Made by a program: the position numbers and the translations under genes
Notes under the pieces: generated by a model
Database searches by the model: none
What the model was told of the DNA's origin: nothing
Seen by the model: only the letters and a program-made list of their open reading frames with translations
In this document: positions 38,898 to 62,065 of the stretch, in pieces
Numbering within the stretch: the stretch's first letter is position 1
Layout of the letters: the number at the start of each line of letters is the position of its first letter
Source of the DNA: Yoonia vestfoldensis SKA53
GTDB lineage: Bacteria > Pseudomonadota > Alphaproteobacteria > Rhodobacterales > Rhodobacteraceae
Direction: 5' to 3'
Assembly (NCBI RefSeq): GCF_000152785.1
Contig: NZ_CH672414.1
Span: forward strand, 1-64,000
DNA: 64,000 nt

Positions 38898-41396
38898 ATG
38901 AACAAGATCGTTTCGACAGACTTCATCACGGATGATGTACAACGTCTGGTGCCCGTGGATGCAACCGCAACCACGCCAAAGAATGCCGCTGTTGCCAAGC
39001 TGATGAAAGCTTGGGAAGCGAAAACAACACAGCGCACTGCCAAGGGCGCTGGCCTGACACTGATGGCGCTCTCGCTGGCTGCTTGTAATGACGACAACAC
39101 CACCGCCGCCGCGCCAACGACACCAACGACACCAACAACACCGGTGACGCCAGCTGGCCAAACCTTCACGCTCACTCCACTTGTGGATATCGCTTCTGAT
39201 ACAACAGCGTTGACCGGCTCGGCCGCGTCGACCTTCCGTTTCACTGGCGCCGACGAAGTCGTGAATGGTATGACCGCAACAATGGCTGCGACTGACACGC
39301 TGCTGGATGGGTCGACCACTGACAATGATGTCCTGAACGTGACACTGACCGGTGCCACGACGATCACGACCATGAACATCGAAACGATTAACCTGTCCTA
39401 CGTTGTGGCTGCTGCTGACTTTACCGGCGCAAACACAGGTACAACGACGTACAATGTTTCGGGTGCGGTTGCTGGTGTACTGTCGACACCTGCTTCTGCG
39501 GCTACAATCGCGCTGAACGACTATGATCGTGTTTTGACCGTTGAGGGCCTGACACTGACCGGAACGACAGCCGCTGGTAGTGCAGAAAGCATGAGCATCG
39601 CCCTTTCTGGTGCGTCATATGGTACGACGGCTGCAACCCAAACTGGTGTGACAATCGACGGCACCGATGGCGAGCAGCTGGAAACGCTGAACATTGCGTC
39701 TAACGGCTCCTCGGCCAACAGCTTTGCGCTGGCGTTTCAGAGCACTGAAACCGTGGGTACTTATACGATCACTGGTGCGCAGGACCTTACGATGCGGGTC
39801 GCTGATGCCAAGGTTTCCGGTACAACGATCAACGCAACCGGCAACACCGGCACAGTTGCAATTTCGCTCGACACCGGTTCCGGTATCACTGTAAGCGCTG
39901 CCAACTGGACAGGCGTTGACAACATCGTTCTGCGTGACTCCGACACCACCGCTGGTGCTGCGACCCTCAACTCCACAGCCTCCGGCCAGAACGTCGTTGT
40001 GGCGAACTCTGTGTCCACTTTGACTGTGGCTGCGACTGGTGCGACATACACGGCGCCAGCAGCTGCTGCATCGTTGGAGCTGAATGGCACATCCACAACT
40101 TCTGGCGTGACTGTCACGACCTATGCCGTGCAGAACGCAACAGCGTTGAACCTGTCGTCGCTTGGCCTTGCTTCCAGCACTTCGACAACAGCCGCGAACA
40201 CGATTTCTAACCTTGACGGCGATTTCACGAGAATCAACATCACCGGTGATACATCGCTTGCAATTACTGATTTGGACATCGAGGCGACTGAAACAGCCAC
40301 GACTGCCACTACGGCTCGCGCAGTTGTGCTTGATGCATCTGCGATGACTGGGAATGCATTCGTGAACATCACTGCATCGGCAGACTCCAAGGTGTCGTAC
40401 TCGATCACTGGTACCGCTGGCGCAGATACAATCGTAATGAACCAGTCAGGCGGTACTGTGATTTCTGGTGCCGGAAATGACACTGTCACGAGCGGAAATG
40501 GTGCCGATACCGTCAGCCTGGGTGCAGGTACAGACACTTACAACGTAAGTTTCGGTGTTGATACGCTGACTCTTGGGGCTGGTAATGACACTGTTGACAT
40601 CGATGCGGCTACTGCGTCTGCCGTGGCACAGGTGTCTACTGTTGTTAACAGTACTGCTACATACACTCATGTTGGTACAGTTTCGGATACAATCTCCGTG
40701 ACAATTAATGGAACAGTGTATTCAACCACTATAGGCGCTGCCGGCGGTACCGCAGACATTGCTGCAGCATCATCGCTGTCACAGTTTATCACGGAGCATG
40801 CAACTGATATTCTGACTGCTCATGGTATCAGCGTTACTAACGTAGTTGCCAGTACCGCTACAGATGATATTATTGCAACCGGCAAGGCGGATGGTACCGC
40901 ATTTACAATCAGTGCGCGCACTGTTGACGCCAGCAACTCCAACGCCCAAGCTGATCTTACTATAACTGCAACCACTGAGGGTTCTGCAGCTAAGGATGTT
41001 GCCACAACAATCACGGACTTCGTGGCGGGTGATATCATTAACACAGTTGGCCTGACGGCGCTGGGTACTGGTGGGTACGTTGAAGGTCTTGCGAATGTCA
41101 GCAATGTGACTGAACACGGTGTAATCGTTATCACTGATGCATCGTATGCGTCCGTGGCTGCCGCTGAAGACGCGCTGCAGACGAAGACAGCAGCAACTAC
41201 AGGTGACGTCACAACGACAACTGCAGGCATTGTTGTATTCTTGAACAGCACTACTGGGACAGCTCAGGCATTCCTGGACAACGACATTGATAGTGACGGC
41301 ACTCTCGCTGATAGCACAGTGGTCTTCACGTTCAGCAACATCACAAACCTGACCGACCTGGCGTCGATCATGTCCGCTGATAGCTTCGTGATCTAA
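38898..41396 (+). CDS. large RTX/beta-strand-repeat surface protein (complete, locus A)
   Basis: 832 residues. The N-terminal head (1-65) is helical and charged and ends in a lipobox-like LMALSLAACN. A Thr/Pro-rich linker follows, coded by a 9-bp tandem repeat (about 39112-39150). The body is Thr/Ala/Gly-rich with many short beta-strand repeats. Near residue 530 is a block of glycine-Asp repeats (GAGNDTV, GNGADTV, GAGTDTY, GAGNDTV) of the RTX Ca-binding type. The C-terminus (LASIMSADSFVI) looks like a type I secretion signal. The upstream TolC/ABC/HlyD genes are the likely exporter. The SapC gene downstream suggests an S-layer or similar coat. Codon use between about 40620 and 40990 is visibly more A/T-rich. 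Confidence 0.8.
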   Translation: MNKIVSTDFITDDVQRLVPVDATATTPKNAAVAKLMKAWEAKTTQRTAKGAGLTLMALSLAACNDDNTTAAAPTTPTTPTTPVTPAGQTFTLTPLVDIASDTTALTGSAASTFRFTGADEVVNGMTATMAATDTLLDGSTTDNDVLNVTLTGATTITTMNIETINLSYVVAAADFTGANTGTTTYNVSGAVAGVLSTPASAATIALNDYDRVLTVEGLTLTGTTAAGSAESMSIALSGASYGTTAATQTGVTIDGTDGEQLETLNIASNGSSANSFALAFQSTETVGTYTITGAQDLTMRVADAKVSGTTINATGNTGTVAISLDTGSGITVSAANWTGVDNIVLRDSDTTAGAATLNSTASGQNVVVANSVSTLTVAATGATYTAPAAAASLELNGTSTTSGVTVTTYAVQNATALNLSSLGLASSTSTTAANTISNLDGDFTRINITGDTSLAITDLDIEATETATTATTARAVVLDASAMTGNAFVNITASADSKVSYSITGTAGADTIVMNQSGGTVISGAGNDTVTSGNGADTVSLGAGTDTYNVSFGVDTLTLGAGNDTVDIDAATASAVAQVSTVVNSTATYTHVGTVSDTISVTINGTVYSTTIGAAGGTADIAAASSLSQFITEHATDILTAHGISVTNVVASTATDDIIATGKADGTAFTISARTVDASNSNAQADLTITATTEGSAAKDVATTITDFVAGDIINTVGLTALGTGGYVEGLANVSNVTEHGVIVITDASYASVAAAEDALQTKTAATTGDVTTTTAGIVVFLNSTTGTAQAFLDNDIDSDGTLADSTVVFTFSNITNLTDLASIMSADSFVI

Positions 41397-41422
41397 TCAC
41401 GTGACGGCTGAAATATAGGATT

Positions 41423-41452
41423 GGCCCGCTTCGGCGGGCCTTTTCCTTTTTT
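41423..41452 (+). terminator. Rho-independent terminator after the locus A surface protein
   Basis: GGCCCGC (41423-41429), a TTCG loop, and GCGGGCC (41434-41440) are followed by TTTTCCTTTTTT. It is a textbook terminator 27 nt after the stop, so the downstream cassette is read separately or by leak-through. Confidence 0.88.
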
Positions 41453-41498
41453 ATATTCGCTTTTGACGATTGTAGCCTGTCCAGCATCGTCGTCAGCG

Positions 41499-41546: not shown

Positions 41547-42428
41547 ATGCCCCGCTATGAGCTGATCACCAAAACCGGCTTTGCCGCGCAGGCCTGGCGG
41601 CGAGTTGACAGCTATGCTTTTGCCGCTACGGATGCCGTGGCCCCCTTGGTGGTGCAGGAACTGGCCAAGGCCTGCATGAGCCTGCCCATCGCCTTCATCC
41701 AACAAAACGACGCCTTTGTCCCCCATGCCGTGCAGGGGCTGGAACCCGGCCGCAACCTGTTTGTCGTCAACGGCACATGGGTCACGCCCTACACCCCCGC
41801 TGTGTACCGCGGTTATCCTTTCGGACTGGCGCAGGGCGACGGCGATGATCTGCATCTCTGCATTGACATGGACAGCGGTCTGGTCGGCGCGGGCGAGGGT
41901 TTTGACCAGCCGTTTTTCGACGAGGCGGGCGAGGCCGCGCAACCGGTCAAGGACGCGCTGAATTTCCTGCAACAGATCCACCGCAACCGTGCTGTGACCC
42001 AGCGTGTGTGTGCCGCACTGGCCGCCGAAGACCTGTTCCAGCCCTGGCCCCTGACCGTGCAAAGCCCCGACGGCGAACGCCGCGTCGATGGCCTGTTCCG
42101 CATCGACGAGGCGCGGTTGAACAGCCTCGACCCCGATGCCTTGGCCCGCGTCCAAAAGGCCGGTGGTCTGGCCGTGGCCTATTGCCAATTGCTGAGCATG
42201 GGAAACATTCAAACGCTGGGCCTGATCCAGCGGAAGCTGGCGGAGGTCAAAACACGGATGCCAGAGATGTCAGATCAAATCGACGTCGACGGCATTTTGC
42301 AGCGGCATAAATCCTCCGAGCCGGAACAAACCCTGGAACCGGTCTCAAACGACAATGTCGTCAATATTGCTTCAGACGAGGGCGATTTCGATCTCTCAGC
42401 GTTCGTGAAGGCCAAGCAAGACGATTAA
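41547..42428 (+). CDS. SapC-family protein (cassette A)
   Basis: 293 residues, start ATG at 41547 with AGGA just upstream. The family pattern is visible throughout: MPRYELITKTGFAAQAWRR, LPIAFIQQNDAF, GYPFGLAQ, FLQQIHRNR, and YCQLLSMGNIQTLGLI near the end. SapC proteins are named from the surface-array locus of Campylobacter fetus and occur near surface-layer and secretion genes. Their biochemical role is not settled. No signal peptide or membrane helix is seen, so it is probably cytoplasmic. Two close paralogues lie at 53212-54093 and 57342-58223. Confidence 0.85.
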   Translation: MPRYELITKTGFAAQAWRRVDSYAFAATDAVAPLVVQELAKACMSLPIAFIQQNDAFVPHAVQGLEPGRNLFVVNGTWVTPYTPAVYRGYPFGLAQGDGDDLHLCIDMDSGLVGAGEGFDQPFFDEAGEAAQPVKDALNFLQQIHRNRAVTQRVCAALAAEDLFQPWPLTVQSPDGERRVDGLFRIDEARLNSLDPDALARVQKAGGLAVAYCQLLSMGNIQTLGLIQRKLAEVKTRMPEMSDQIDVDGILQRHKSSEPEQTLEPVSNDNVVNIASDEGDFDLSAFVKAKQDD

Positions 42429-42499: not shown

Positions 42500-42703
42500 A
42501 TGACTGACACCAAAGCAGCTACTATCACCATCGACGATAAGGCATACGAACTTACCGATTTGACCGAGGCTGCACGCGCGCATATCGCAAACATTCAGTT
42601 CGTCGACGCGCAGATCCGGCAGTTGAATAATGAATGGGCGGTTTGTGATACGGCTCGGATGGCTTATGAGGCGGCGTTCAAGCGGGAACTGGCCAAGACC
42701 TGA
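42500..42703 (+). CDS. DUF6447-like small protein, type a (cassette A)
   Basis: 67 residues. It begins with a short beta hairpin (ATITIDDKAYELTDL) followed by one long helix (QFVDAQIRQLNNEWAVCDTARMAYEAAFKREL). This plan matches the DUF6447 family as I recall it. The function is unknown. It always follows sapC and precedes a second protein of the same plan. The paralogues in cassettes B and C share most residues. Confidence 0.72.
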   Translation: MTDTKAATITIDDKAYELTDLTEAARAHIANIQFVDAQIRQLNNEWAVCDTARMAYEAAFKRELAKT

Positions 42704-42753: not shown

Positions 42754-42951
42754 ATGCCCAAAATCAGCGTAGACGGCACCGAATACGACACCGAGAACCT
42801 GAGCGTGAACGGCAAGGCCCAATTGGCCAGCCTGCAATTCCTGGAAGTGCAGATGCAAAAGCTGAAGAACGAAATTGCTGTGTATCAAACAGCGCGTGCC
42901 GGTTACGCCGCCGCGCTGAATAATGAGCTAGCAAAGATTGAGGCAGCGTAA
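42754..42951 (+). CDS. DUF6447-like small protein, type b (cassette A)
   Basis: 65 residues with the same hairpin-plus-helix plan as the preceding gene (ISVDGTEYDTENLSVNGKAQL, split before QFLEVQMQKL). The helix ends with NNELAKIEA. The two types may pair through their helices. It starts 50 nt after type a and ends 4 nt before the exported protein gene, so the cassette is an operon. Confidence 0.74.
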   Translation: MPKISVDGTEYDTENLSVNGKAQLASLQFLEVQMQKLKNEIAVYQTARAGYAAALNNELAKIEAA

Positions 42952-42955: not shown

Positions 42956-43237
42956 ATGAATACAATCACAGCCGCGATATTGGCTGTCGGCATGATCGGG
43001 GCGGCAGCTATGCTGTCGGCCTATTCACCCATGGCCGTTGCGCAGACCCAGCCTGCACCAGATACCAATACTGTATTGAACACTGGCACAGATGCCCTGC
43101 TGACCATGCCGCTGCTGGCTGATAAGGGGTGGTTCGTCCACGCGTATGGTGGCCGTGTGCGCGCCTGTACGGCGGATGGGGCCAGTGTCGCAGGCGAAAG
43201 ACCCGCGCCCAAATGTTCGCAGTGGAGCGAATACTGA
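42956..43237 (+). CDS. small exported protein of the SapC cassette (A)
   Basis: 93 residues. An N-terminal hydrophobic segment (AAILAVGMIGAAAMLSAYSP) ends in a possible signal cleavage at AVAQT. The mature part is short, with a two-Cys end (ACTADGAS, then PKCSQW) that could form a disulfide in the periplasm. The start at 42956 is shared with the copies in cassettes B and C. No known family. It closes the cassette. Confidence 0.7.
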   Translation: MNTITAAILAVGMIGAAAMLSAYSPMAVAQTQPAPDTNTVLNTGTDALLTMPLLADKGWFVHAYGGRVRACTADGASVAGERPAPKCSQWSEY

Positions 43238-43953: not shown

Positions 43954-43987
43954 CCAAGGACCAAGGACCAAGGACCAAGGACCAAGT
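43954..43987 (+). repeat. tandem 7-bp repeat CCAAGGA (4 copies plus partial)
   Basis: CCAAGGA repeats four times from 43954 to 43981 and ends with CCAAG. Scattered relatives occur at about 43370, 43440, 44130, 44420, 44505, 44565 and 48265. The array may expand or contract by slippage. Confidence 0.85.
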
Positions 43988-44265
43988 GCCACTTTACACG
44001 GACCGTAGTCGAAGGCCAAAGACCCGACAGGAGAGGCCCACATTCCACGGTGTGGTGGGCCAAGGCGTCACGGCCCACGGCACGCCCAGCCGCAACGCGC
44101 AGCCCGTACCTCGCAACCCGCACCTCGGTCCTTGGTCAGACTGCGCCGATACCGCGGGGCAGTCCGGAGCAGACGGAGACGACTTGTATGCCGACAACAA
44201 GCCCAAATGAAATTGGGCCCAGCAGAATTTGGCAACCAAACAAGTATAGGTGCTTGCTACAGCAA

Positions 44266-45157: not shown

Positions 45158-46273
45158 TTAGAACGGGATTTGAAACCGCTCCGGATTAGGCGGTGGATCA
45201 TACCGGTCGGGAAAGGCTTCGTGCAGCGCGTAGCGCCCGTAGTCCGTGAGCCGCGTACCACGGGCGTCCTTTTCTATCATCCCGTCTTTCGCAAGCTTTT
45301 GGATGACTTTGTTGGCTTTTCCCGCCGAGCAGCCAACCTTGGCTGCTATAGCACGTTGAGTGGGTATTTTTTGCGATTCAGCGACAACGCGAAGAACCAT
45401 AATATCATCGCTCACCTCGAAGGCTGCGTGGTCGACACTGAATGCCAACTTGCCATCAGCGTCCTCATCAAGAACAGCGACGAAGTTGGCATTCTCCGGC
45501 GCACGCCCACGGATTTTCGAGAAACTCAATTCAAAGTTGGCGCCTTGGTGGAAGATAGCGCCCCCTTCGGGTTTCTTGAGTTCAATGACGTAGTCCATCG
45601 GGACCTCGATGATCGACGCACCGCGCTGTTTCCCAGCTTTGTTGGTATGGTGAACGACTAACACGGCGTATGTGCTGTGGCGCAACTTCACCAAGAAATC
45701 GACCAGACTTTGCGTCTCAGTGTTGGAGTTTTCGTCCACGCCGCGCCGCAACGTTGACAGATTATCCAAGATGATCAGCCCGGGCCTGCGGCCCTCAGCC
45801 TCCAACGCGTTAAGCATTGCCTCAATCTGGCTTTGCTCTGTCCGGTCATCTAGGCAGACTGGACGACCTTCTTGGTAGAGCTCTTCGCTCGGGAGGATGT
45901 CGAGGCTGTCCAGCTCCTGACCGCCGCTTAGCGCCTTTATGCGATCGCGGATGTCGATCGTTTGCATTTCGCCATCGACATAGAGCACCCGTGTTTGCTG
46001 GTGGATCTTCCAGCCGAGAAACACACCTTGCCCAGTTGAGATGGCAACACCGAGTGCGAGGGAAAACCACGACTTCCCAATGCCACGCGGCGCGACGACC
46101 ATGCCGAAACTTGAACGGGGCATGAAGGTCGAGAGCAACATTTGTTTCGGGGGCATGTCCCGTTTCATCAGCTCAGTCGCGCTGACGACGAACGGAAAAA
46201 GGTTTCGGGGAGGCGGGGCCTGGTTTGGCATCGCCTGCGCGAGAAGTTCTTGTAACTGGCTATTCTCTGTCAT
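45158..46273 (-). CDS. RepA-like AAA/RecA-fold ATPase (element replication)
   Basis: 371 residues from the ATG at 46273 (ATGA overlap with the prim-pol gene). Walker A is APRGIGKS, and Walker B is LIILDNLSTL near residue 180. The order and spacing resemble the hexameric RepA/KaiC-like helicases of plasmids and phage satellites. The C-terminal 80 residues form a winged helix (IPTQRAIAAKVGCSAGKANK) that could bind the adjacent iterons. It probably unwinds the element origin with the primase upstream. Confidence 0.82.
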   Translation of the reverse strand: MTENSQLQELLAQAMPNQAPPPRNLFPFVVSATELMKRDMPPKQMLLSTFMPRSSFGMVVAPRGIGKSWFSLALGVAISTGQGVFLGWKIHQQTRVLYVDGEMQTIDIRDRIKALSGGQELDSLDILPSEELYQEGRPVCLDDRTEQSQIEAMLNALEAEGRRPGLIILDNLSTLRRGVDENSNTETQSLVDFLVKLRHSTYAVLVVHHTNKAGKQRGASIIEVPMDYVIELKKPEGGAIFHQGANFELSFSKIRGRAPENANFVAVLDEDADGKLAFSVDHAAFEVSDDIMVLRVVAESQKIPTQRAIAAKVGCSAGKANKVIQKLAKDGMIEKDARGTRLTDYGRYALHEAFPDRYDPPPNPERFQIPF

Positions 46274-47052
46274 TTCCGCAACTCCCGCTTCAGGATTGAA
46301 CAAAAAACCTCATCAACCTCTTTCAAAATAAGCGGCTCTGTCATGAGCGTTTTGTTCATGTGATGGGCGAGATCGTGAACTTCCTGAGGGGAATAGACTT
46401 TCAGCAAGTAGCCGATGCGCGATGCGAGCTCACTGTTGCGTTGGCCTGTGACGATTGGGGTAGTGAGCCGTTCCCCAACGTCCGAGCGTGTGTATCCGTT
46501 GGTTGTTTGGGTTCCACTCGAGGGGGTCGCGGCGTAGATCAGCCTCTTTAAATCAGCCGGCATGGGTGCAGGCCGCCACGTAAAACCAGATACGCTGTGA
46601 TCCCAGCGGTACATGCCCTTCTGGGACGTGCTGCCAAAACTGATAGCATTCGCGCCACTGCCGCGGATGTCGATGCCCGGCCCGAGCTTCCCGACGGATG
46701 AGGGCAGACCCTCTGAACCGGTACGAAAATACAGATGAATTCCGCCCGACGGTGTTCGAACCAACATCGTCGGGGGCAAGTCATCAATCAGGCCACGCAA
46801 AGTTTCGATCCCGTTTACACCTCCTTTCACATCGAGATCGACGACAGTGACGCCGTTAATTGGGCCCGTTGGGATGGCGGTCATAGCATTCGGGAAATTC
46901 CCGAACAGTTCCTCGATGCCCGCCTTGTCATTGGTGGCTCTTCCGAAGGGATCTTTCACGCATGGCTTTTTCTGCTGGTTTGACGGAAAAACGCGATAGC
47001 CAGTTGTGCCTGCAACCATCAGTGCGACTTCGAGGGGTGTCATGTCGCTCAT
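46270..47052 (-). CDS. prim-pol domain DNA primase/polymerase
   Basis: 260 residues from the ATG at 47052. The N-terminal prim-pol pattern is clear: GYRVFPSNQQKKPCVKDPF, the D-x-D acidic pair in VVDLDVKGG near residue 80, RTPSGGIHLYFR near 105, and GIDIRGSGANAI. It makes primers for element replication. It overlaps both neighbours by 4 nt, so AlpA, the unknown protein, prim-pol and RepA-like ATPase form one operon. Confidence 0.87.
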   Translation of the reverse strand: MSDMTPLEVALMVAGTTGYRVFPSNQQKKPCVKDPFGRATNDKAGIEELFGNFPNAMTAIPTGPINGVTVVDLDVKGGVNGIETLRGLIDDLPPTMLVRTPSGGIHLYFRTGSEGLPSSVGKLGPGIDIRGSGANAISFGSTSQKGMYRWDHSVSGFTWRPAPMPADLKRLIYAATPSSGTQTTNGYTRSDVGERLTTPIVTGQRNSELASRIGYLLKVYSPQEVHDLAHHMNKTLMTEPLILKEVDEVFCSILKRELRK

Positions 47053-47651
47053 GCTGCGTCCCTCCCTAACAGAGTGGCCCAATCGTCTGGTGACAGCTCC
47101 ATGATATCGCGGTTGGTGAAGGTGCCACCGTTGAGCTGTTGGAGCGACATCGCCAAGCTGGCGCGCTGAAAACCGATCACGGTTTCACCCGCTGTCGAAA
47201 ACAGCGCCCAGCTGTCGTCTGGCACAAGAACGATGCTTGGATCCTTCGTCCGCATGCCTAGAGGAAAACCAAAGGGGGACTTTATCACCACTGTGTCGAT
47301 GAGCGTTATCCGGCCCGCGGCAAGGTCGACCGTTTTTGTGCGTGTCACGAGATACCTATCTGGGTCGAAGAAGCGTCTTGCGAGTTCCGAGGGACGATCC
47401 ACGCCGACCGGTACGTTTCGAAGCAGGATCGCAAGGCCTTTTGAGCTACTCCGTAGCCCGACCAAACCCTTCTTGTGACGCTTAAAGTCGCGCACCATTT
47501 GGGCCTCGCTTTGAGCGGGCGCACCTTGTGAAAGGGGTGCTACCCCTGGCAGACATGCCGCAGGGAAGGCTCCTGACCAGTCATAGGCCTGCTGTGCAGC
47601 GGCAATCAGTGCTGCCTTTGTCTGTTTAGACATCATGAAAACTTCAGACAT
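47049..47651 (-). CDS. hypothetical protein of the element replication operon
   Basis: 200 residues from the ATG at 47651, which overlaps the AlpA stop by 8 nt. No family was recognised. The C-terminal half is mixed alpha/beta (ITLIDTVVIKSPFGFPLG, IVLVPDDSWALFSTAG). There is no signal peptide or membrane segment. By position it may help replication, excision or regulation of the element. A frame upstream of 47651 lies inside alpA and is not used. Confidence 0.6.
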   Translation of the reverse strand: MSEVFMMSKQTKAALIAAAQQAYDWSGAFPAACLPGVAPLSQGAPAQSEAQMVRDFKRHKKGLVGLRSSSKGLAILLRNVPVGVDRPSELARRFFDPDRYLVTRTKTVDLAAGRITLIDTVVIKSPFGFPLGMRTKDPSIVLVPDDSWALFSTAGETVIGFQRASLAMSLQQLNGGTFTNRDIMELSPDDWATLLGRDAA

Positions 47652-50779: not shown

Positions 50780-50877
50780 GAAGCCGATTCTGTTCGCTCA
50801 CTACAAGTACTGACACAGTAGCCGGTGGTACAGGCGACGATACAATCTCCGGCGCACGGGTCGATACCCTGCTAACT

Positions 50878-54164: not shown

Positions 54165-54368
54165 ATGACTGATACCAAAGACGCCAAGATCACCATAGAC
54201 GAGCAAGAATACGCGGTTGCTGATTTGACCGAGGCTGCGCGTGCAAATATCGCCAATATCCAGTTTGTGGATGCGCAGATCCAGCAGTTGAATAACGAAT
54301 GGGCTGTTTGCGACACCGCCCGCATGGCCTACGAGGCGGCATTCAAGCGGGAACTGGCCAAGGCCTGA
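54165..54368 (+). CDS. DUF6447-like small protein, type a (cassette B)
   Basis: 67 residues, collinear with 42500-42703 (AKITIDEQEYAVADLTEAAR, then QLNNEWAVCDTARMAYEAAF). Hairpin plus long helix. It is intact and follows sapC by 71 nt. Confidence 0.72.
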   Translation: MTDTKDAKITIDEQEYAVADLTEAARANIANIQFVDAQIQQLNNEWAVCDTARMAYEAAFKRELAKA

Positions 54369-54421
54369 GCGCCAACCTGTTTGCTGCTAATTGCTTCAAT
54401 GATAGATGGAAGAGCCTAAAA

Positions 54422-54619
54422 ATGCCCAAAATCACCGTAGACGGCATCGATTATGACACCGAGAACCTGAGCGTGAACGGCAAGGCCCAATTGGCCAGCC
54501 TGCAATTCCTGGAGGTGCAGATGCAAAAGCTGAAGAACGAAATTGCTGTGTATCAAACAGCGCGTGCCGGTTATGCTGCTGCTTTGCAAAACGAGCTTGC
54601 CAAAATCGAGGCAAAGTAA
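54422..54619 (+). CDS. DUF6447-like small protein, type b (cassette B)
   Basis: 65 residues, nearly identical to 42754-42951 (ITVDGIDYDTENLSVNGK, then QNELAKIEAK). The start at 54422 matches the other copies. A longer frame upstream has no support. Confidence 0.74.
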   Translation: MPKITVDGIDYDTENLSVNGKAQLASLQFLEVQMQKLKNEIAVYQTARAGYAAALQNELAKIEAK

Positions 54620-54623
54620 CGCG

Positions 54624-54884
54624 ATGAACACAATCACGGCCGCGATATTGGCTGTCGGTATGATCGGGGCGGCAGCCATGCTGTCGGCCTATTCACCGAT
54701 GGCGATTGCCCAGACCCAGCCGGCACCGAATAGCGGCACGGACGCCCTGCTGACCATGCCGCTGTTGCAGGACAAAGGTTGGTTCATCCACGCCCATGGC
54801 GGCCGTGTGCGCGCGTGTACGGCGGATGGGGCCAGTGTGGCAGGGGACAGGCCCGCGCCAAAGTGTTCGGAATGGAGCACGTAG
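54624..54884 (+). CDS. small exported protein of the SapC cassette (B)
   Basis: 86 residues, collinear with the cassette A copy but lacking seven residues after QPAP. The hydrophobic N-terminus and the two-Cys end (ACTADGAS, PKCSEW) are kept. It closes cassette B. About 235 nt without a gene follow before integrase 2. Confidence 0.7.
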   Translation: MNTITAAILAVGMIGAAAMLSAYSPMAIAQTQPAPNSGTDALLTMPLLQDKGWFIHAHGGRVRACTADGASVAGDRPAPKCSEWST

Positions 54885-55119: not shown

Positions 55120-56457
55120 TTATCCAGCCGGGTGCATCTGTGAACCAGGGTCCAACACTTGCCCTATGGCTGCATTCGGCATCTCCGATCCGGTAGAAAT
55201 GGCGGCTCTGCGTCTGTTTCCAGCCTGTCGGTCCGGGGCCAGTTCCACCGCGTCATAGATATCGCCTTCGATCACATTGCGCTGTGGAACCATCCCCAAG
55301 GTCGCGGCCACCGCAGCTGTCCCGATGTTTGACGCATCAAGCAAGGTTTCTTGCGTAAGATGCGCGTAGCGTTGTGTCGTTTTGATCTGCGTATGCCCGA
55401 GCAGTTTTTGGACTTCATAGATTGAGCGGCCATTATTGATCAACAGGCTGGCGAATGTATGACGCAGATCATGCAGGCGGACATCGGGTAAGCCAGCCTT
55501 CACGCGTGCGGAATTCCAAGCGTACCAAACATGCACATAAGGCTTGCCTGTTTTGGGATTGCCAAAGATGTAATGCGATTGAGAACGGCCCTGCATCTGT
55601 TGCAGCACCGCATATGCACCGTCATTCAGCGGGACATGGCGCGCGAAACCAGACTTTGTTTGCGGAATGCGCCACATGCCTTTGATCAAATCAACATCTT
55701 CCCAGGTGGCATGCAGAACCTCGTTCCGGCGTGTCCCCGTTAGCAGCAAGAAAGCGACGATATGTTGCAGCATCTTGTTTTGGGACTCTTTCACCGCCCG
55801 GTAAAGCAGCGCAAGCTCTTCGGCTCTTACATATCGTTCTTTTTGGTTGTTTTCCTTCAGCAGACGAACGCCATGCGTGGGGTTGCCTGTAACGCCCGCG
55901 ATCTTCCAATCGCGCCACGCCAGGTTGAACATATAACGCAACAAAATCAGCCGTCGATTGATCGAGGCGGGCGCTGCGCCGGCTTTCAGGCCAATCTGCT
56001 GCAAGCTCAGAACATCCTCGATAGTGATCTCATCCATATGCATGGTCCCCAATTGTGGGGTCAGATGTGTGCGGGCCAAAGTCTCGTCGGTTTTCCAAGA
56101 CCGCTTGTTTGCCTGCGCAAATGGCAAGTAACGCTCGCGTACAAAATCACCAAAAGTGGGCACCAGCCGTTTGACGGCCCTTTCGGCAAGGGGGTCAATG
56201 CCCAATGCGAGCTTGTTGCGGTGTTGGCGGCACAAACCTCGGGCCTGTGGCAGCGTGATATCGCCCACATTGGCGAGCTTGATATAGCGGGTCTTGCTCC
56301 GATCGTCGGTGTAGCGCATGTAATAGGTCATGCCGCCGGATGTGCGCACTTCAAGCACAAGACCTTTCACACGACGGTCAAAAAAAACTTCCTTGCGCTT
56401 CGTGCTAGGGCAGACTGCAGATGCGACAAATTGTGCAGTCAGATCAATGACGGGCAT
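55120..56457 (-). CDS. tyrosine recombinase/integrase 2 (central)
   Basis: 445 residues. It is the same family and domain plan as integrases 1 and 3 and clearly related to them, but more diverged across the whole length. The catalytic region is intact (LTGTRRNEVL, LHDLRHTFASLL, HTQIKTTQRYAH). The C-terminus runs about 40 residues longer than in the others and that tail has no domain character. It lies at the centre of the mirrored cassettes B and C, with no XRE gene beside it. Insertion of this unit may have cut the end of cassette C. Confidence 0.9.
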   Translation of the reverse strand: MPVIDLTAQFVASAVCPSTKRKEVFFDRRVKGLVLEVRTSGGMTYYMRYTDDRSKTRYIKLANVGDITLPQARGLCRQHRNKLALGIDPLAERAVKRLVPTFGDFVRERYLPFAQANKRSWKTDETLARTHLTPQLGTMHMDEITIEDVLSLQQIGLKAGAAPASINRRLILLRYMFNLAWRDWKIAGVTGNPTHGVRLLKENNQKERYVRAEELALLYRAVKESQNKMLQHIVAFLLLTGTRRNEVLHATWEDVDLIKGMWRIPQTKSGFARHVPLNDGAYAVLQQMQGRSQSHYIFGNPKTGKPYVHVWYAWNSARVKAGLPDVRLHDLRHTFASLLINNGRSIYEVQKLLGHTQIKTTQRYAHLTQETLLDASNIGTAAVAATLGMVPQRNVIEGDIYDAVELAPDRQAGNRRRAAISTGSEMPNAAIGQVLDPGSQMHPAG

Positions 56458-56652: not shown

Positions 56653-56820
56653 CTAATGGTTGGCCGCTTTCGGGGTAAACAGCGGCATGATCAGCGGCGC
56701 ATCTGTGCCGCTATTCGGTGCCGGCTGGGTTTGAGCAAACGCCATCGGTGAATAGGTCGACAGCATGGCTGCCGCCTCGATCATACCGACAGCCAATATC
56801 GCGGCGGTGATTGTATTCAT
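56653..56820 (-). CDS. small exported protein of the SapC cassette (C), 3' truncated
   Basis: 55 residues. It matches the copies in A and B to about residue 48 (TAAILAVGMIEAAAMLS, then TQPAPNSGTDAPLIMPLF) and then runs into unrelated sequence (TPKAANH). The conserved two-Cys end is lost. The break lies 195 nt from integrase 2, so a recombination or insertion event there probably removed the end. Confidence 0.65.
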   Translation of the reverse strand: MNTITAAILAVGMIEAAAMLSTYSPMAFAQTQPAPNSGTDAPLIMPLFTPKAANH

Positions 56821-56824: not shown

Positions 56825-57022
56825 CTACTTTGCCTCGACTTTGGCAAGCTCAGCTTTCAAGGCGGTGGCATAACCGAAGCGGGCAGTCTGATATGCGGAA
56901 ATTTCGTTTTTCAGATGTTGCATCTGCACGTGTAAAAATTGGATGCTCGCTAATTGCGCCTTTCCGTTCACGCTCAGACTTTCCGTATCGTATTTTATTC
57001 CGTCTAAAGTAATTTTTACCAT
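56825..57022 (-). CDS. DUF6447-like small protein, type b (cassette C)
   Basis: 65 residues, related to 42754-42951 and 54422-54619 but more diverged (QFLHVQMQHLKNEISAYQTA, KAELAKVEAK). It ends 4 nt before the truncated exported-protein gene, as in the other cassettes. Confidence 0.72.
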   Translation of the reverse strand: MVKITLDGIKYDTESLSVNGKAQLASIQFLHVQMQHLKNEISAYQTARFGYATALKAELAKVEAK

Positions 57023-57069: not shown

Positions 57070-57273
57070 TCAGGCATTTTGCATTTCACGGCTAAATGCA
57101 GCGGTATAGGCCATGCGGGCGGTGTCGCAGACAGCCCATTCGTTGTTCAACTGCTGAATCTGCGCATCCACAAACTGGATATTGGCAATATGCGCGCGCG
57201 CTGCCTCGCTCAGATCTGCAATCATGTATTGCTTATCGTCGATCGTGATTTTGGCATCCTTGGTGTCAATCAT
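57070..57273 (-). CDS. DUF6447-like small protein, type a (cassette C)
   Basis: 67 residues, collinear with the type a copies (AKITIDDKQYMIADLSEAAR, QLNNEWAVCDTARMAYTAAF). It follows sapC C by 68 nt. Intact. Confidence 0.72.
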   Translation of the reverse strand: MIDTKDAKITIDDKQYMIADLSEAARAHIANIQFVDAQIQQLNNEWAVCDTARMAYTAAFSREMQNA

Positions 57274-57341: not shown

Positions 57342-58223
57342 TTAATCGCGGTGTTTGGAATTCACAAAAGAGGACAGGTCAAAGTCGCCTTCGTCGGCAA
57401 CGACATTAACCAGATTGCGGTCATTGTCTGTTTCCAAACTGTCCAGATTATCATTCGCTTTGTGCCGCTGCAAAATACCATCGACGTCGATTTGATCTGA
57501 CATCTCTGGCATCCGGTTTTTCACCTCGTCCAATTTGCGCGCAATCAGGCCCAGCGTTTGAATGTTTCCCATGCTGAGCAATTGGCAATACGCCACAGGC
57601 AGACCACCGGCCTTTTGAACGCGGGCCAAGGCTTCGGGATCGAGGCTATTTAACCGTGCCTCATCAATCCGGAACAGGCCGTCCACACGGCGTTCGCCGT
57701 CGGGGCCTTGCACGGTCAAAGGCCAGGGTTGGAACAGGTCTTCGGCGGCCAGCGCCGCGCAGACACGCTGGGTCACGGCACGGTTGCGGTATATCTGCTG
57801 CAGGAAATTCAGCGCGTCCTTCACCGGTTGCGCAGCCTCGCCCGCCTCGTCGAAAAACGGCTGGTCGAAACCCTCGCCCGCGCCGACCAGACCGCTGTCC
57901 ATGTCGATGCACAGATGGAGCTGATCGACCTCGCCCTGCGCCAGTGCGAAAGGATAACCGCGATAGGCGGCGGGGGTATAGGAGGCGACCCATGTGCCGT
58001 TGACCACGAACAGGTTGCGGCCAGGTTCCAGCCCCTGCACAGCATGGGGAACAAACGTGTCGTTTTGTTTCATGAAGGCAATAGGAAGACACATGCAGGC
58101 TTTGGCCAATTCCGTCACCACAAGCGGAGCGACAGCATCCGTAGCGGCAAAGGCATAACTGTTATGACGCCGCCAGGCTTGCGCGGCAAAGCCGGATTTG
58201 GTGATCAGTTCATAACGGGGCAT
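57342..58223 (-). CDS. SapC-family protein (cassette C)
   Basis: 293 residues, full length and close to the A and B copies, with changes mostly in the N-terminal part (LVVTELAKACMCLPIAFMKQ) and the acidic C-terminal tail. All family motifs are intact. The hairpin at 58246-58276 lies just upstream. Confidence 0.85.
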   Translation of the reverse strand: MPRYELITKSGFAAQAWRRHNSYAFAATDAVAPLVVTELAKACMCLPIAFMKQNDTFVPHAVQGLEPGRNLFVVNGTWVASYTPAAYRGYPFALAQGEVDQLHLCIDMDSGLVGAGEGFDQPFFDEAGEAAQPVKDALNFLQQIYRNRAVTQRVCAALAAEDLFQPWPLTVQGPDGERRVDGLFRIDEARLNSLDPEALARVQKAGGLPVAYCQLLSMGNIQTLGLIARKLDEVKNRMPEMSDQIDVDGILQRHKANDNLDSLETDNDRNLVNVVADEGDFDLSSFVNSKHRD

Positions 58224-58451: not shown

Positions 58452-60353
58452 TTATGCGATAACGTCGGTCGCAAAGAGTGGGAGCGTTGTCACACCGGTC
58501 AGCTGGATGAAGATACCATTTGCTTCAACGTGGGTAAGAGCGTCTGCAGTTGTTTCGACGTATACATACGTATTGCCATTAAACACCGCGAACGACACGC
58601 CCTCGACTGTTGTGTTGGCTGCGACCATTGCAGTGGCAATTTGAGCATCTGTAGAACCAGCAGCGAGTGCAGTAACTGCTGCTTGAACAGCAGATTGCTG
58701 AGCCGACACAATATCGGTATTGCCGAACTGAAGTTTATCAGTACCAGCCACGAAGTCAGTTATTATATCCGCAACAGCAGCACCGTCAGCACCAGCGTTG
58801 TCGCCAGCCGCAAATGCAAACGTATCTGCGCCAGCCCCACCAGTCACTGTGTCTGTACCATCACCGCCGGTGATTGTATCATTTCCAGCACCACCAATAA
58901 TCACGTCAGCCTGACCCGAACCAGTGATCGTATCAGCCCCAGAACCGCCCGTGATCGCCACACCATTTGTCGCAAAGGTCGCTGCGCTCAAAGTGTTTGT
59001 CCCTGTAGAACCTGACGCGTCGAGGGTGAAGTTCGAGGTCGCCATGTTTCCTGTTGTAAAGGAGTGGTTACCAGCACCAAACAACTTAACGCTTGTCAAG
59101 GAACCAGAGGTTGCTGCCGACTGTACAATCTCAGCCGCATCCACAGAGGTCACTTCAAGATTTTCCACACCGGCAAGTGTCAGGTTAGACGCTGCGCCGT
59201 TGATGTCTTCGTTAAGGGTTGAGTCACCATCACTGTATGTGATCTTGACGGTATCAATCTGACCAACCGTCGTAGCGCCCTTAACACCGATCGTAGTGGT
59301 AGCGTTGCCAGCGATCATAGTCACCGCAGCAGCCTGCGTGGCTGTCAAATCTGTCACACCGGTAGCTGCACCGCCTGCAGTGATCCCTACAGCAGTAATG
59401 CCGGCAATATTATCCAAATCAACGGACACGCCATCAGCTACGTTCAAAGTTTCAAAGTTGGTGTACTTTGCACCCAAGGTGGCCGAGGCAAGTTGAGCTG
59501 AGGCCGCAACGACAAGCGTGTCTGTCCCTGCACCTGCGTTTACAGAACCAGTCGTCAGAACTGCGGCTGTGGTGAAGGTATCATTACCTGCGCTGCCGGT
59601 AGTTGCACCGGTCACAAGCGTGCTAAGAGTTGCAACAACACCGCCAGTGTTTGCCGATGCAGTCACGGTTGCAAAATCAGCGTCCAAAGTTCCGAGCGTC
59701 ACTGTACCAGCACCTGTGATTGTCAGGGTCTGCGCAGCAGCATTGGCGCCTACGGTCAAGCCCGTCGTTGTAAGAGCTGTCGAAGCATTAATAGTTACCG
59801 CAGTTGGTGTACCGGTTGTGGAGATGGCGCCAGTTGTGTTAGCAGCACCCGAAGATGTTATCGACAAAGACGTCAGGCCAGTACCGTCAACAGCGATTGC
59901 ACCAGCGGTCACACCGCCTGTAATTGTCAACTCTCCGCTTGTTGCCGCAGCAACGTAAGTAGCCGTAGTGGCACCATTTGTCGCAACACCATTGCCGGTT
60001 ACCTGAATGGCGGTTGTGTCTGCAAGGTTTGTGAGCGTCAAAGCGTCTGTTGACAGATTGTTATTGATCAACGTGACGCCAGGCAAGTTTGCGCCCGAAA
60101 GTGTGACGCCCGCGGTTGATACAGCACGGATTTCAACAGTCTCAACATTGGTTATCGCAGCACCGTTTGTCGCGTCTGTAATTGCCGTGGTCCCTTGAGT
60201 TGTGATTTTCAGGGTATCACTTCCAGCAGCACCATTGATGTTATCCGCTGCGTTGAGTGTGGAGCTTGCCGGTGTCTGAGCATCAACCAAGCCGGAAACG
60301 GTATCATCGCCAGCCCCGCCAACGATCGTATCCAGACCTGCAGTGAGCGACAC
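58452..60353 (-). CDS. headless RTX/beta-strand-repeat surface protein (cassette C)
   Basis: 633 residues from a GTG at 60353. The frame is open from 60386, right after the TGA inside the junction. It opens with VSLTAGLDTIVGGAGDDTVSG, an RTX-like start. The body is rich in Thr/Ala/Gly strands, and the C-terminal third holds a fine RTX block (GSGADTI, GAGNDTI, GDGTDTV, GAGADTFAF) before a secretion-signal-like end (LPLFATDVIA). As in cassette B, head, linker and ribosome binding site are missing. Internal sequence is unlike B and A apart from motifs, so these are variant bodies. Confidence 0.76.
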   Translation of the reverse strand: MSLTAGLDTIVGGAGDDTVSGLVDAQTPASSTLNAADNINGAAGSDTLKITTQGTTAITDATNGAAITNVETVEIRAVSTAGVTLSGANLPGVTLINNNLSTDALTLTNLADTTAIQVTGNGVATNGATTATYVAAATSGELTITGGVTAGAIAVDGTGLTSLSITSSGAANTTGAISTTGTPTAVTINASTALTTTGLTVGANAAAQTLTITGAGTVTLGTLDADFATVTASANTGGVVATLSTLVTGATTGSAGNDTFTTAAVLTTGSVNAGAGTDTLVVAASAQLASATLGAKYTNFETLNVADGVSVDLDNIAGITAVGITAGGAATGVTDLTATQAAAVTMIAGNATTTIGVKGATTVGQIDTVKITYSDGDSTLNEDINGAASNLTLAGVENLEVTSVDAAEIVQSAATSGSLTSVKLFGAGNHSFTTGNMATSNFTLDASGSTGTNTLSAATFATNGVAITGGSGADTITGSGQADVIIGGAGNDTITGGDGTDTVTGGAGADTFAFAAGDNAGADGAAVADIITDFVAGTDKLQFGNTDIVSAQQSAVQAAVTALAAGSTDAQIATAMVAANTTVEGVSFAVFNGNTYVYVETTADALTHVEANGIFIQLTGVTTLPLFATDVIA

Positions 60354-60444: not shown

Positions 60445-60846
60445 TCATTTTGGGTTAGACGTTTTTGGGTCGGATGCCACCTCATCGAACGACCCATCTG
60501 CGCCCATGCCAGCGGTTATCGCAGCCTCAATTAGGTGCAGCTTGTTATCGGGCACCGTAAGGCGGAGATCCCCCTCGATAGTCAGGTCAATCATCACGCC
60601 TGCACTACGGAACACACTTAAAGCATACTCTAGGTCTCCGCTGGAGATGGATCCCGCGGCTGTCTCCGCACGGGCCAATTTAGACTTCGATATCCCCATA
60701 TCCTGAGCAAAAGTCACCTGCGACAGACCTAATATTGACCTACCAGCCCTCAGGGCTGCTGCCAGCTTGATGGTATACTTGCGCCTTGGGTGAAGCACTG
60801 GTATTGATTCTGGACTATCTGACCAATTATTTGCTTTATCGCTCAT
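60445..60846 (-). CDS. XRE-family HTH regulator (integrase 3 side)
   Basis: 133 residues. The HTH at about 25-80 (LRAGRSILGLSQVTFAQDMG, ISKSKLARAETAAGSI) is homologous to the XRE protein at 50343-50636. The C-terminus is longer. A GTG at 60798 is a possible later start, which would leave more room for a promoter shared with integrase 3, only 13 nt away. It probably represses the integrase and reads toward the headless gene. Confidence 0.78.
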   Translation of the reverse strand: MSDKANNWSDSPESIPVLHPRRKYTIKLAAALRAGRSILGLSQVTFAQDMGISKSKLARAETAAGSISSGDLEYALSVFRSAGVMIDLTIEGDLRLTVPDNKLHLIEAAITAGMGADGSFDEVASDPKTSNPK

Positions 60847-60859
60847 TCGGAGGCCTCTT

Positions 60860-62065
60860 ATGCCAAAAGCTAGACTCGACTCCCAGTTTGTATCTCATGC
60901 CGACTGCCCAGAAGGCAAACGCAAACAAACCTATTTCGACACGTCGACGCGAGGGCTCTGTCTGGAAGTGCGTATCTCTGGTGGGCGGACCTATTACCTG
61001 CGCTACTCCGATGATCGCAGCAAGACGCGCTATATTAAGCTGGCCGATGCTGGTGATGTGACCCTGCCTCAGGCTCGGACATTGTGCGAGAGGATGCGCA
61101 ACAAGATCGCGATGGGGGTCGACCCGCTCAAGGAGAGGGCTGGCAAGAAACTGGTCCCGACCTTTGAGGCCTTCGCTTGGAATAGCTACATGCCGTTCTC
61201 GCAAGCCAACAAGCGGTCATGGAAAACAGACGAGACGTTGATCCGCACCCACCTCATCCCCACGTTCGGCAAGAAACATCTAGATGAGATCACCACGGAG
61301 GATGTTCTCAACATGCAGCAGGCGGGCCTGAAGGCGGGGGCAGCGCCTGGATCCGTCAACCGGCGGCTCATCTTGTTGCGGTATATGTTCAACACGGCAT
61401 GGCGCGACTGGAAGATCGCCGGCGTGAAGGAGAATCCGACACATGGTGTTCGTCTACTCAAAGAAAACAACAAAAAAGAGCGGTATGTTAGGGCTGACGA
61501 GATGGCACGACTTTATGCCGAAATCTGCAGTTCGCAGAACACGATGCTCAAACATATTGTCGCCTTCCTCGTGCTAACAGGGGCGCGGCGAAACGAAGTC
61601 CTGCACGCGACGTGGCATGACATCAATATGACAACGGGGAAGTGGCGAATACCTGACACCAAGTCTGGCTATGCCCGCCATCTCCCCCTCAATGACGGGG
61701 CTATGGCGGTCCTGCACCAGATGCGGGGCGTATCACGCTCCCATTTCATATTTGGGAACCCAAAGACGGGCAAAGCCTATGTTCACATCTGGTATGCTTG
61801 GAACACCGCGCGCAAAAAGGCTGGGTTACCAGACGTCCGCATGCACGATCTGCGGCACACATTCGCCAGCCTGCTGATCAACAACGGGCGTTCCATTTAC
61901 GAGGTCCAAAAGCTTTTGGGCCACACGCAGATCAAGACCACGCAACGCTACGCGCACCTGACCCAAGAGACGCTGCTGGACGCGTCCAACATTGGCACAG
62001 CCGCTATGGCCGCCACGCTGGGGATGGGGCCACATGGCGATGTCATCGAGGGTCGGCTGTGCTGA
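60860..62065 (+). CDS. tyrosine recombinase/integrase 3
   Basis: 401 residues, GGAGG just before the ATG. From about residue 38 to the end it is nearly identical to integrase 1 (catalytic Arg, HDLRHTFASLL, HTQIKTTQRYAH). The first 38 residues (MPKARLDSQFVSHADCPEGK and so on) differ. These form the arm-type DNA-binding end, so the two enzymes may recognise different arm sites while sharing catalysis. It leads a second element that continues to the right with AlpA. Confidence 0.9.
   Translation: MPKARLDSQFVSHADCPEGKRKQTYFDTSTRGLCLEVRISGGRTYYLRYSDDRSKTRYIKLADAGDVTLPQARTLCERMRNKIAMGVDPLKERAGKKLVPTFEAFAWNSYMPFSQANKRSWKTDETLIRTHLIPTFGKKHLDEITTEDVLNMQQAGLKAGAAPGSVNRRLILLRYMFNTAWRDWKIAGVKENPTHGVRLLKENNKKERYVRADEMARLYAEICSSQNTMLKHIVAFLVLTGARRNEVLHATWHDINMTTGKWRIPDTKSGYARHLPLNDGAMAVLHQMRGVSRSHFIFGNPKTGKAYVHIWYAWNTARKKAGLPDVRMHDLRHTFASLLINNGRSIYEVQKLLGHTQIKTTQRYAHLTQETLLDASNIGTAAMAATLGMGPHGDVIEGRLC

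What the first reader, a model, noticed from the sequence alone, without database searches (positions are those of the whole stretch)
38898..62065. A SapC-linked type I-secreted surface protein with two silent, headless cassette copies and three integrases
Sequence shows three cassettes of fixed order: RTX/beta-strand-repeat protein, SapC, two DUF6447-like proteins, small exported protein. Only copy A (38898) has the N-terminal head and a normal start. Copies B (50878) and C (60353) start just after a shared junction and lack head, linker and ribosome binding site. Three tyrosine recombinases lie among them. In Campylobacter fetus, silent sap surface-layer genes are activated by DNA rearrangement at a single promoter (established knowledge). 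A similar store of variant surface genes here is inference. The alternative is that integrative elements repeatedly target the 5' end of these genes and leave headless bodies.
Basis: partly seen in the sequence, partly recalled or inferred. Interest (0 to 1): 0.9.

Follow-up and report, generated by a model that had tools for sequence, protein, structure and literature searches.

The report
Surface-protein swapping mobile-element stack
A bacterium carries a stack of mobile DNA elements that appear to insert at one exact spot inside a surface-protein gene, each bringing a new body for the protein and pushing the previous body downstream as a start-less spare, and some phage-bearing DNA shows the same layout.

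Summary
Every body in it, headed or headless, begins at one short DNA site, CGCTCACT, in the codons of a hinge motif (TFTLT in the headed copy). At the hinge the leucine-threonine pair is written CTCACT in 9 of 10 genes examined, against 3 of 145 such pairs inside the same genes: the DNA itself is conserved, as expected of an attachment site. A second species of the genus has the same locus with a near-identical head, four other bodies and the same integrase family. Two plasmids and two prophage contigs show both ends of an element: the upstream hinge joins a head in frame to a complete body; the downstream hinge, beside the integrase, starts a headless body. So the elements carry the replacement body, and headless copies are displaced earlier ones: a last-in, first-displayed stack. 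Switching back is geometrically possible but not shown. Nearest known analogue: orphan toxin tails of CDI/Rhs loci.

The parts
33597..35033 (+). TolC-like outer-membrane component of the adjoining type I secretion system
   Evidence: PF02321 OEP, E 1e-32; 77% identical match in G028
35113..37317 (+). ABC-transporter component of the type I secretion system
   Evidence: PF00005 and PF00664; 90% identical match in G028
37337..38647 (+). HlyD-like adaptor of the type I secretion system
   Evidence: PF13437; 95% identical match in G028
38898..39170 (+). constant head of the surface protein (N-terminus and TP-rich linker)
   Evidence: only head in the array; 95% identical over 66 aa in G028, 58-59 of 60 bases per block
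39169..39176 (+). hinge A, CGCTCACT: proposed attachment site inside the codons of TFTLT
   Evidence: core CGCTCAC(T/A) at 8 of 8 bodies of own genome and G028
39171..41396 (+). body A, now joined to the head (741 aa)
   Evidence: PF00353; matches the body at the same place in G028 over about 100 aa only
41547..42428 (+). SapC, cassette A
   Evidence: PF07277, E 7.3e-63
42500..42703 (+). DUF6447 protein 1, cassette A
   Evidence: PF20045, 31.1 bits, cut-off 27
42754..42951 (+). DUF6447-like protein 2, cassette A
   Evidence: PF20045, 20.2 bits, below cut-off
42956..43237 (+). small exported protein, cassette A (93 aa); export inferred from its N-terminus
45158..46303 (-). AAA ATPase of element 1
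   Evidence: PF13481, E 1.7e-30
46270..47082 (-). primase-polymerase of element 1
   Evidence: PF09250, E 1.8e-25; PF08708
49080..50285 (-). Int1, tyrosine recombinase of element 1
   Evidence: PF00589, PF13356
50343..50636 (+). HTH regulator between Int1 and hinge B
   Evidence: PF13560, 39.6 bits; 84% identical counterpart beside an integrase of G028
50795..50802 (+). hinge B: right end of element 1
   Evidence: CGCTCACT; in-frame TGA 13 codons upstream, no ATG/GTG/TTG
50797..52983 (+). headless body B (728 aa)
   Evidence: PF00353
53212..54093 (+). SapC, cassette B
   Evidence: 89% identical to A
54165..54368 (+). DUF6447-like protein 1, cassette B
   Evidence: PF20045, 23.0 bits, below cut-off 27
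54422..54619 (+). DUF6447-like protein 2, cassette B
   Evidence: repeat D1, 91% identical to the A copy; no Pfam hit at E 0.001
54624..54884 (+). small exported protein, cassette B (86 aa)
55120..56457 (-). Int3, tyrosine recombinase without an adjoining hinge (taken as a remnant)
   Evidence: PF00589; no hinge within 1.6 kb
56653..56820 (-). small exported protein of cassette C, cut short (55 aa)
56825..57022 (-). DUF6447-like protein 2, cassette C
   Evidence: by similarity in reading, not Pfam-tested
57070..57273 (-). DUF6447-like protein 1, cassette C
   Evidence: by similarity in reading, not Pfam-tested
57342..58223 (-). SapC, cassette C
   Evidence: 85% identical to A
58452..60347 (-). 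headless body C (631 aa)
   Evidence: PF00353, three stretches
60342..60349 (-). hinge C: right end of the inverted element that carries body D
   Evidence: CGCTCACT; in-frame TGA 13 codons upstream, one GTG between
60445..60846 (-). HTH regulator between Int2 and hinge C
   Evidence: PF13560, 28.3 bits
60860..62065 (+). Int2, tyrosine recombinase
   Evidence: PF00589, PF13356; 91% identical to Int1
62141..62527 (-). PIN-domain protein of the Int2 element
   Evidence: PF01850, E 2.3e-12

Best explanation
The array is a stack of mobile elements that use a coding hinge as their integration site. A constant gene start (secretion genes plus a head of about 90 residues) ends at a hinge whose DNA, CGCTCACT, encodes part of TFTLT. 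A tyrosine integrase of one subfamily recombines an element into this hinge. The element's left end is itself a hinge followed by a complete new body, SapC, two DUF6447-type genes and a small exported protein; its right end is the integrase, an HTH regulator and an attachment arm that supplies an in-frame stop. Insertion therefore fuses the new body in frame to the resident head and pushes the old body with its own SapC cassette downstream, where it has no usual start codon and is presumably silent. Repetition gives a last-in, first-displayed stack: A is on show; B, C and D are displaced. Prophages and plasmid-borne elements with the same integrase subfamily have the same layout elsewhere. Shown: the anatomy, the shared DNA core, integrase adjacency, head constancy against body exchange between two species, and elements with both ends visible. 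Inferred: that this integrase does the cutting, that bodies A-D were exposed in turn, and that the gain is a changed cell surface (for example against phages or grazers).
For: Core CGCTCAC(T/A) at 8 of 8 hinges of own genome and G028. Hinge codons CTCACT 9 of 10 (own 4, G028 4, pA62H2 2; the tenth CTCACA) against 3 of 145 internal LT pairs. Between own and G028 the head agrees at 58-59 of 60 bases per block, the TP-rich linker at 43-45, the body after the hinge at 19-32, while genes beyond the array (HK, LPD, rnpA) are 92-93% identical proteins. Among the 8 bodies no BLAST alignment longer than 300 residues exceeds 41.2% (short ones reach 58%), against 78-95% DNA identity for SapC. Between hinges A and B the only other CGCTCAC(T/A) is at 48337, at no body. 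All 6 headless bodies of own and G028 adjoin an integrase. A headed and a headless hinge bound a segment in 6 of 6 examined loci that show a head: own A/B (11.6 kb apart), G028 g4/g3 (14.9 kb), Pseudomonas plasmid pA62H2 (7.7 kb), P. pseudonitzschiae plasmid p4 (15.5 kb), IMG/VR contig 3300023179_007765 (hinges 370 and 56175, with terminase, portal and tail genes between) and contig 3300044606_000259 (hinges 514 and 54765). Of integrases at least 40% identical to Int1 with at least 1.4 kb of 5' flank, 13 of 18 lie within 1.6 kb of a hinge and body (one of the 13, G857, was found through the hinge pattern); below 40%, 0 of 7. Two contigs have two integrases and two headless bodies in tandem.
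Against: No excision, circle or empty site was seen; the 30 P. pseudonitzschiae plasmid records that hold the head also hold the displaced fragment. Int3 has no hinge, and C and D are inverted, so later rearrangement must be assumed. Four other integrases of at least 40% identity do not sit at a hinge: G490, G659, L074, and L069, which has a body without hinge, so the subfamily has other targets or decayed sites. Nine further records show a headless hinge but no headed one: G692 (no headed hinge found in the 40 kb fetched) and eight phage-type records (L065/G849, L067/G850, L071, L075, G863, G864, G867, G868) whose left end is not on the record or in the parts read. Outside own and G028 the core varies in its first bases and once inside (CACTCACT in G692 and the p4 head, CCCTCACT in L065, TGCTCACT in L071, L075 and the G865 head, TGCTCATT in p4's fragment), so only CTCA is strictly common. 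The locus was found in 2 of 56 genomes of the genus. The protein database search could not be made.
Confidence: 0.85

Rival explanations
1. Programmed surface variation in the manner of Campylobacter fetus: the headless bodies are a standing reserve, and the integrases move them to the single head by excision (A out, B on) or inversion (C or D on), within a growing population.
For: Hinges A and B are direct, A and C/D inverted, and all keep the same reading frame at CTC ACT. All 8 bodies in the two species are uninterrupted and all 28 SapC pairs have dN/dS 0.08-0.17 with no stops, so stored cassettes are not decaying freely.
Against: No alternative junction was seen; only one assembly per species was at hand. 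Intact bodies are also expected if insertions are recent, and intact SapC if it has its own promoter. No body of one species has a close counterpart in the other (best long alignments 38-41%), which speaks for import rather than reshuffling of a fixed set. In p4 the displaced body is a fragment of 100 codons.
Confidence: 0.3
2. Simple insertion debris: elements target the 5' part of body genes and carry no body of their own; headless bodies are dead remains and body A is a separate intact gene.
For: All 6 headless bodies of own and G028 adjoin an integrase. The displaced copy of p4 and the body beside the L069 integrase are eroded. In nine records no headed hinge was seen.
Against: Where a head is visible, the partner of the integrase-side hinge is the head's own hinge, 6 of 6, so the body lies inside the element. 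Head constancy with body exchange between species is unexplained.
Confidence: 0.08
3. Tandem duplication of a headed gene followed by loss of heads and fast divergence or gene conversion of bodies, with integrases present by chance.
For: Cassettes are homologous and in series; SapC copies are 78-95% identical at DNA level.
Against: Heads would have had to be lost at the same base in unrelated bacteria and phage contigs; the sequence before the hinge is integrase flank that resembles other integrase flanks, for example D and g1.
Confidence: 0.03

Closest known systems
Orphan cdiA-CT/cdiI and rhs-CT arrays (contact-dependent inhibition and Rhs loci)
   Same: One full gene with a constant N-terminal part, followed by displaced C-terminal modules with their partner genes, in tandem, with integrase genes between; both a fossil record and a silent reserve have been proposed (PMC4927057, passages read).
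   Different: Here the exchanged part is a secreted surface-protein body with SapC/DUF6447 genes, not a toxin with immunity gene; the joint is a short DNA site next to an integrase, and phage contigs have the layout. The passages read suggest transposition, site-specific and homologous recombination, without naming a site.
Campylobacter fetus sap surface-layer locus (recalled, no paper on it read)
   Same: One start, several silent surface-protein bodies, inverted copies; the SapC family name.
   Different: Recalled: C. fetus cassettes share long conserved 5' ends and switch by inversion within the cell. Here the stretch shared by all copies is about 8 bp and the bodies lie on integrase elements.
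Lysogenic conversion and integration with replacement of a gene's 3' end (e.g. e14 in icd; recalled)
   Same: Integration inside a coding sequence with an element-borne replacement of the end of the gene.
   Different: Here the replaced part is most of the protein (631-932 aa in own genome) and differs strongly, so the product is changed rather than restored.
Integron cassette arrays (recalled)
   Same: Promoter-less cassettes stacked, newest next to the start.
   Different: Each element here has its own integrase and the join is a protein fusion; attC sites were not looked for.

Membership tests
Tyrosine recombinase (Phage_integrase, PF00589) | catalytic domain with R, H-x-x-R, H and Y residues, and an arm-binding domain | tested here: met
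   PF00589 and PF13356 in Int1, Int2, Int3; R243, H329, R332, H355, Y364 invariant in the four integrases (the role of these residues is recalled)
CDI/Rhs orphan-module array | displaced C-terminal coding modules without start downstream of an intact gene | tested here: met
   (C has one GTG just before the hinge; g3 an ATG 26 codons before it)
CDI/Rhs orphan-module array | modules encode a toxin with its immunity protein | tested here: not met
   Pfam finds RTX repeats, SapC and DUF6447 and no toxin or immunity family in the modules scanned; VENN or Rhs motifs were not searched for
Campylobacter fetus sap system | long shared 5' identity between silent and expressed copies (recalled) | tested here: not met
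   only the short core is shared by all; B and C share a 40-nt flank at 83%, which headed A lacks
Campylobacter fetus sap system | switching within a population by inversion | not testable with these tools
   needs reads or cultures
Type I-secreted RTX surface protein | RTX nonapeptides and adjoining secretion genes | tested here: met
   PF00353 in A, B, C, D; TolC-like PF02321, ABC PF00005/PF00664 and HlyD PF13437
Surface-layer (crystalline) protein | forms a two-dimensional array on the cell | not testable with these tools
   no structural or microscopic test
Integrative element / temperate phage with attL and attR | same core at both ends of the element, integrase at one end | tested here: met
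   6 of 6 examined loci that show a head
Integrative element / temperate phage with attL and attR | excised circle or empty site observed | tested here: inconclusive
   none found; the only strain series at hand is occupied, 30 of 30 records

The most novel reading that the evidence does not exclude
A class of mobile elements, including temperate phages, has made the hinge of a host surface protein its integration site and carries interchangeable surface bodies, so that each infection re-dresses the cell in a new coat while the old coats are filed in order and can be put back on by excision or inversion; for phages this would be receptor exchange and superinfection exclusion by protein fusion.
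Probability: 0.35. Interest if true: 0.95.

Novelty: new variant of a known kind. Interest (0 to 1): 0.87.

Why it matters
It would give a mechanism for very fast turnover of bacterial surface proteins: whole bodies exchanged in one site-specific step, in frame, with the secretion genes and head kept. It ties together integrative elements, plasmid-borne elements and phages that use one short site, and would explain arrays of start-less surface genes. It makes testable predictions: an integrase assay on the hinge, circles containing a body, and lysogens with a changed surface. None of the 39 titles listed by nine paper searches describes it; the lists were read as titles and abstract starts, one search showed 8 of 665, and the library holds open-licence papers only.

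Tried and rejected
Considered and rejected: simple duplication with head loss (heads would end at the same base in unrelated hosts); pure insertion debris (the body lies inside the element where both ends are visible). A DNA-pattern search for hinge-bearing genes in 398 genomes of the phylum found 0, but the pattern ends in a GG that hinge A itself lacks, so it is weak evidence. An attempt to find an empty site among P. pseudonitzschiae plasmids failed because all 30 are occupied. No consensus promoter was found before the head; two promoter-like matches near Int1 are about one sd above shuffles, so the single-promoter idea is untested. Contigs L099-L102 were read for the far end of the phage but show other genes there, so SapC as phage cargo rests on one contig end (L096). 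No structure prediction was made.

Faults of mine: the joined own sequence carried one base too many after 64000, so D coordinates there are one too high, queries from beyond 64000 were read out of frame (the identities of HK, LPD and rnpA are void, as are its bodyD, prim2 and hel2 queries) and Int4 is missing from the table and void in that; corrected from then on, and HK, LPD, rnpA and body D were repeated. In one search the L075 hinge was read one base off; one search corrects it. The 25 of 27 includes seven hinges found with patterns that contain CTCACT (G857 both, G863, G864 first, G865 second, G867 first, G868) and three called by a CTCA regex in the same records, so I rely.

Full report
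1. What is there. The window is bases 1-64000 of contig C1 of a 3.07 Mb genome. Between a type I secretion operon (TolC-like 33597-35033, ABC 35113-37317, HlyD-like 37337-38647) and a histidine-kinase/dihydrolipoyl-dehydrogenase region at about 76-79 kb (named by reading) lies one array of 36.1 kb from the head to the end of Int4. On the plus strand: head A, body A, SapC, two DUF6447-type genes, a small exported gene, element genes (AAA ATPase, primase-polymerase), Int1, an HTH gene, headless body B with its cassette, Int3. Then, inverted: cassette C, headless body C, HTH gene, Int2, element genes (PIN protein, PriCT_1 primase, a helicase-like ORF by reading), cassette D, headless body D, Int4. 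Int2, Int4 and Int3 are 91, 81 and 77% identical to Int1. The first-stage reader saw three of the four copies, since the fourth is outside the window.

2. The hinge. Head A ends and every body begins at CGCTCAC(T/A). In A: CCTTCACGCTCACTCC, reading F-T-L-T. In B, C and D: TCGCTCACT, preceded not by a head but by the flank of the integrase. Upstream in frame B and C meet a TGA after 13 codons and D after 6; B and D have no ATG, GTG or TTG in that stretch, C one GTG; of the three headless bodies of G028, g1 and g2 meet a stop after 6 codons and g3 after 35 with one ATG between. In 38650-75100 the core occurs six times on both strands: the four hinges, 48337 and 60037. The leucine-threonine pair at the hinge is written CTCACT in 9 of 10 genes (own four, G028 four, two of plasmid pA62H2; the tenth CTCACA), against 3 of 145 LT pairs elsewhere in the same bodies. 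The constraint is therefore on DNA and not only on protein. Larger counts (16 of 19 with one row misread; 25 of 27 against 4 of 399) include hinges that were found through the motif and are not independent. In other hosts the first bases vary (CACTCACT, CCCTCACT, TGCTCACT, and TGCTCATT in the p4 fragment).

3. The second species. Of 60 genomes searched, own included, the head gives a strong match besides own only in G028, with weak ones in G014 and G008 that were not examined further. Of 56 genomes of the genus only own and G028 have this SapC type at E 1e-30, four copies each, all in the array; of 394 family genomes from 393 genera only own has it at E 1e-50, and only own has the integrase at E 1e-80. 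G028 has the same neighbours on both sides (kinase, dehydrogenase and rnpA products 92-93% identical), a head 95% identical over 66 residues, four bodies, and integrases 82 and 86% identical to Int1 plus one of 44% and one of 24%. In blocks of 60 bases the head agrees at 58-59, the TP-rich linker at 43-45 and the body at 19-32. The longest good body alignments between the species are B-g2 38% and C-g3 41%, while SapC copies are 78-95% identical at DNA level with dN/dS 0.08-0.17 in all 28 pairs and no stops. The SapC tree mixes the species except that g1, g2 and g4 group together. The integrase flank of D and that of g1, both beside the kinase, are alike up to the hinge, while the bodies after it are not: one search gives only a weak match (28%) between D and g1, and g1 is not among the matches of body D shown. 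G028 also ends in an inverted unit there, so this inversion is probably older than the split (inference).

4. Elements with both ends visible. (a) Pseudomonas sp. ANT_H62 plasmid pA62H2: DUF4214-headed protein with hinge at 1698 of L048, VapE-annotated protein, integrase (45% to Int1, here on the same strand as the body), headless body from 9370, DUF6447, SapC (47% to A); the core occurs once more in the stretch, at 24458, away from any body. (b) P. pseudonitzschiae plasmid p4: DUF4214-annotated headed protein with hinge at 29062 of L042, relaxase, integrase (55%), HTH, headless fragment from 13599 of 100 codons that is 94.5% identical over 293 bases to the start of the full body. (c) IMG/VR contig 3300023179_007765, 59 kb: head (cut by the contig end) joined at hinge 370 to a full body, a methyltransferase-like gene and others, phage early genes, terminase large subunit, lambda-type portal, minor tail protein, integrase 54360-55517 (40%), and hinge 56175 with a headless body followed by a start of a DUF6447-like frame by reading. 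(d) Contig 3300044606_000259, 55 kb: ORF from base 1 with DUF4214 and RTX matches, hinge 514, D5-type primase, a tail-hub protein, integrase 52946-54106, hinge 54765, and a headless body that runs 186 codons to the end of the record (bases 18001-44999 were not read). With own and G028 these are six loci, and in all six the upstream hinge is headed and the downstream one headless. Contigs 3300042691_056010 and 3300027291_000115 have two different integrases and two headless bodies in tandem. Nine records, G692 and eight phage-type ones, show a headless hinge without a headed one in what was held or read.

5. How specific is the integrase? Among integrases at least 40% identical to Int1 with 1.4 kb or more of 5' flank, 13 of 18 have a hinge and body within 1.6 kb; one of the 13 (G857) was found through the hinge. 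The misses are Int3, G490, G659, L074 and L069; L069 has a body whose start is deleted. Below 40%, 0 of 7. Left out before the count: integrases with shorter flanks, L066 (same DNA as L065), matches under 250 residues, and the records fetched later. So the hinge is the usual but not the only neighbour of this subfamily.

6. Reading. The pair of hinges that bounds each element is taken as attL/attR; the only partner of hinge B at a body in direct orientation is hinge A, 11.6 kb away, so element 1 begins with body A. Insertion at a hinge gives head plus new body, and old body plus cassette downstream behind an in-frame stop. The inverted part (D, Int2, C) is the same unit turned round: between hinges D and C lie body D, its cassette, element genes and Int2. 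Int3 is taken as a remnant at the point where the two orientations meet, and there the last gene of cassette C is cut. Which insertion came first is not dated.

7. Function. Bodies carry RTX repeats and adjoin secretion genes; exposure on the cell is inferred. That SapC genes of headless cassettes stay under purifying selection suggests use, recent arrival, or expression of their own; these are not separated here. Changed phage receptors are the likeliest gain where a phage is the carrier (inference). Phage contig L096 has the end of a SapC gene (52% to A) directly before an ImmA-like and an HTH gene (by reading), and 3 of 8 of its proteins match the hinge phage G849 at 64-77%, which fits phages carrying whole cassettes, but L099-L102 show other genes there.

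8. Comparison. The nearest described case is the orphan array of CDI loci: displaced cdiA-CT/cdiI modules in tandem with integrase genes, explained either as a fossil record or a silent store (PMC4927057, passages). Campylobacter fetus, integrons and e14 are from memory. No listed title of nine paper searches describes this arrangement; the term DUF6447 is in no paper of the library. I call it a new variant of a known kind: orphan-module displacement, here with a defined DNA site and integrase, on surface proteins, and shared with phages.

Noticed in passing
window 43340-44560; L016 about 67-68 kb (C1): Apparently non-coding stretch with many copies of short motifs such as CCAAGGACCAAGG and TCCGAGGTCC in element 1; translated ORFs of the Int2 element suggest similar text there.
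   Followed up: no
window 44603-44956; C1:66808-67344: Small protein with an HGGKSTGAKT motif in both elements; no Pfam match at E 0.001 for the window copy.
   Followed up: no
G000:C1:1532303-1533022: A fifth, distant SapC gene (32% identity) with one in-frame TGA, outside the array.
   Followed up: no
L047 (Pseudomonas canadensis plasmid NZ_CP145492.1) 9153-10930: DUF6447 and SapC stand alone after a stretch resembling one upstream of VapE in pA62H2, without annotated body or integrase next to them; possibly a deletion scar.
   Followed up: no
L104:5492-7027 and bases 22438-23973 of the G692 stretch (L059 and L060): A methyltransferase-like protein (PF10119) follows the phage-carried body and, 76% identical, the headless body of G692; it may be a cassette gene in other hosts.
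   Followed up: partly
L040:1962 region (G028 body g3): Body g3 has an ATG 26 codons before the hinge, so it might be translated with a short new N-terminus.
   Followed up: no
window 41420-41450: GC-rich hairpin with T-run after body A, folding z-score -3.0 for 41390-41470: the transcript of body A may end before SapC.
   Followed up: partly
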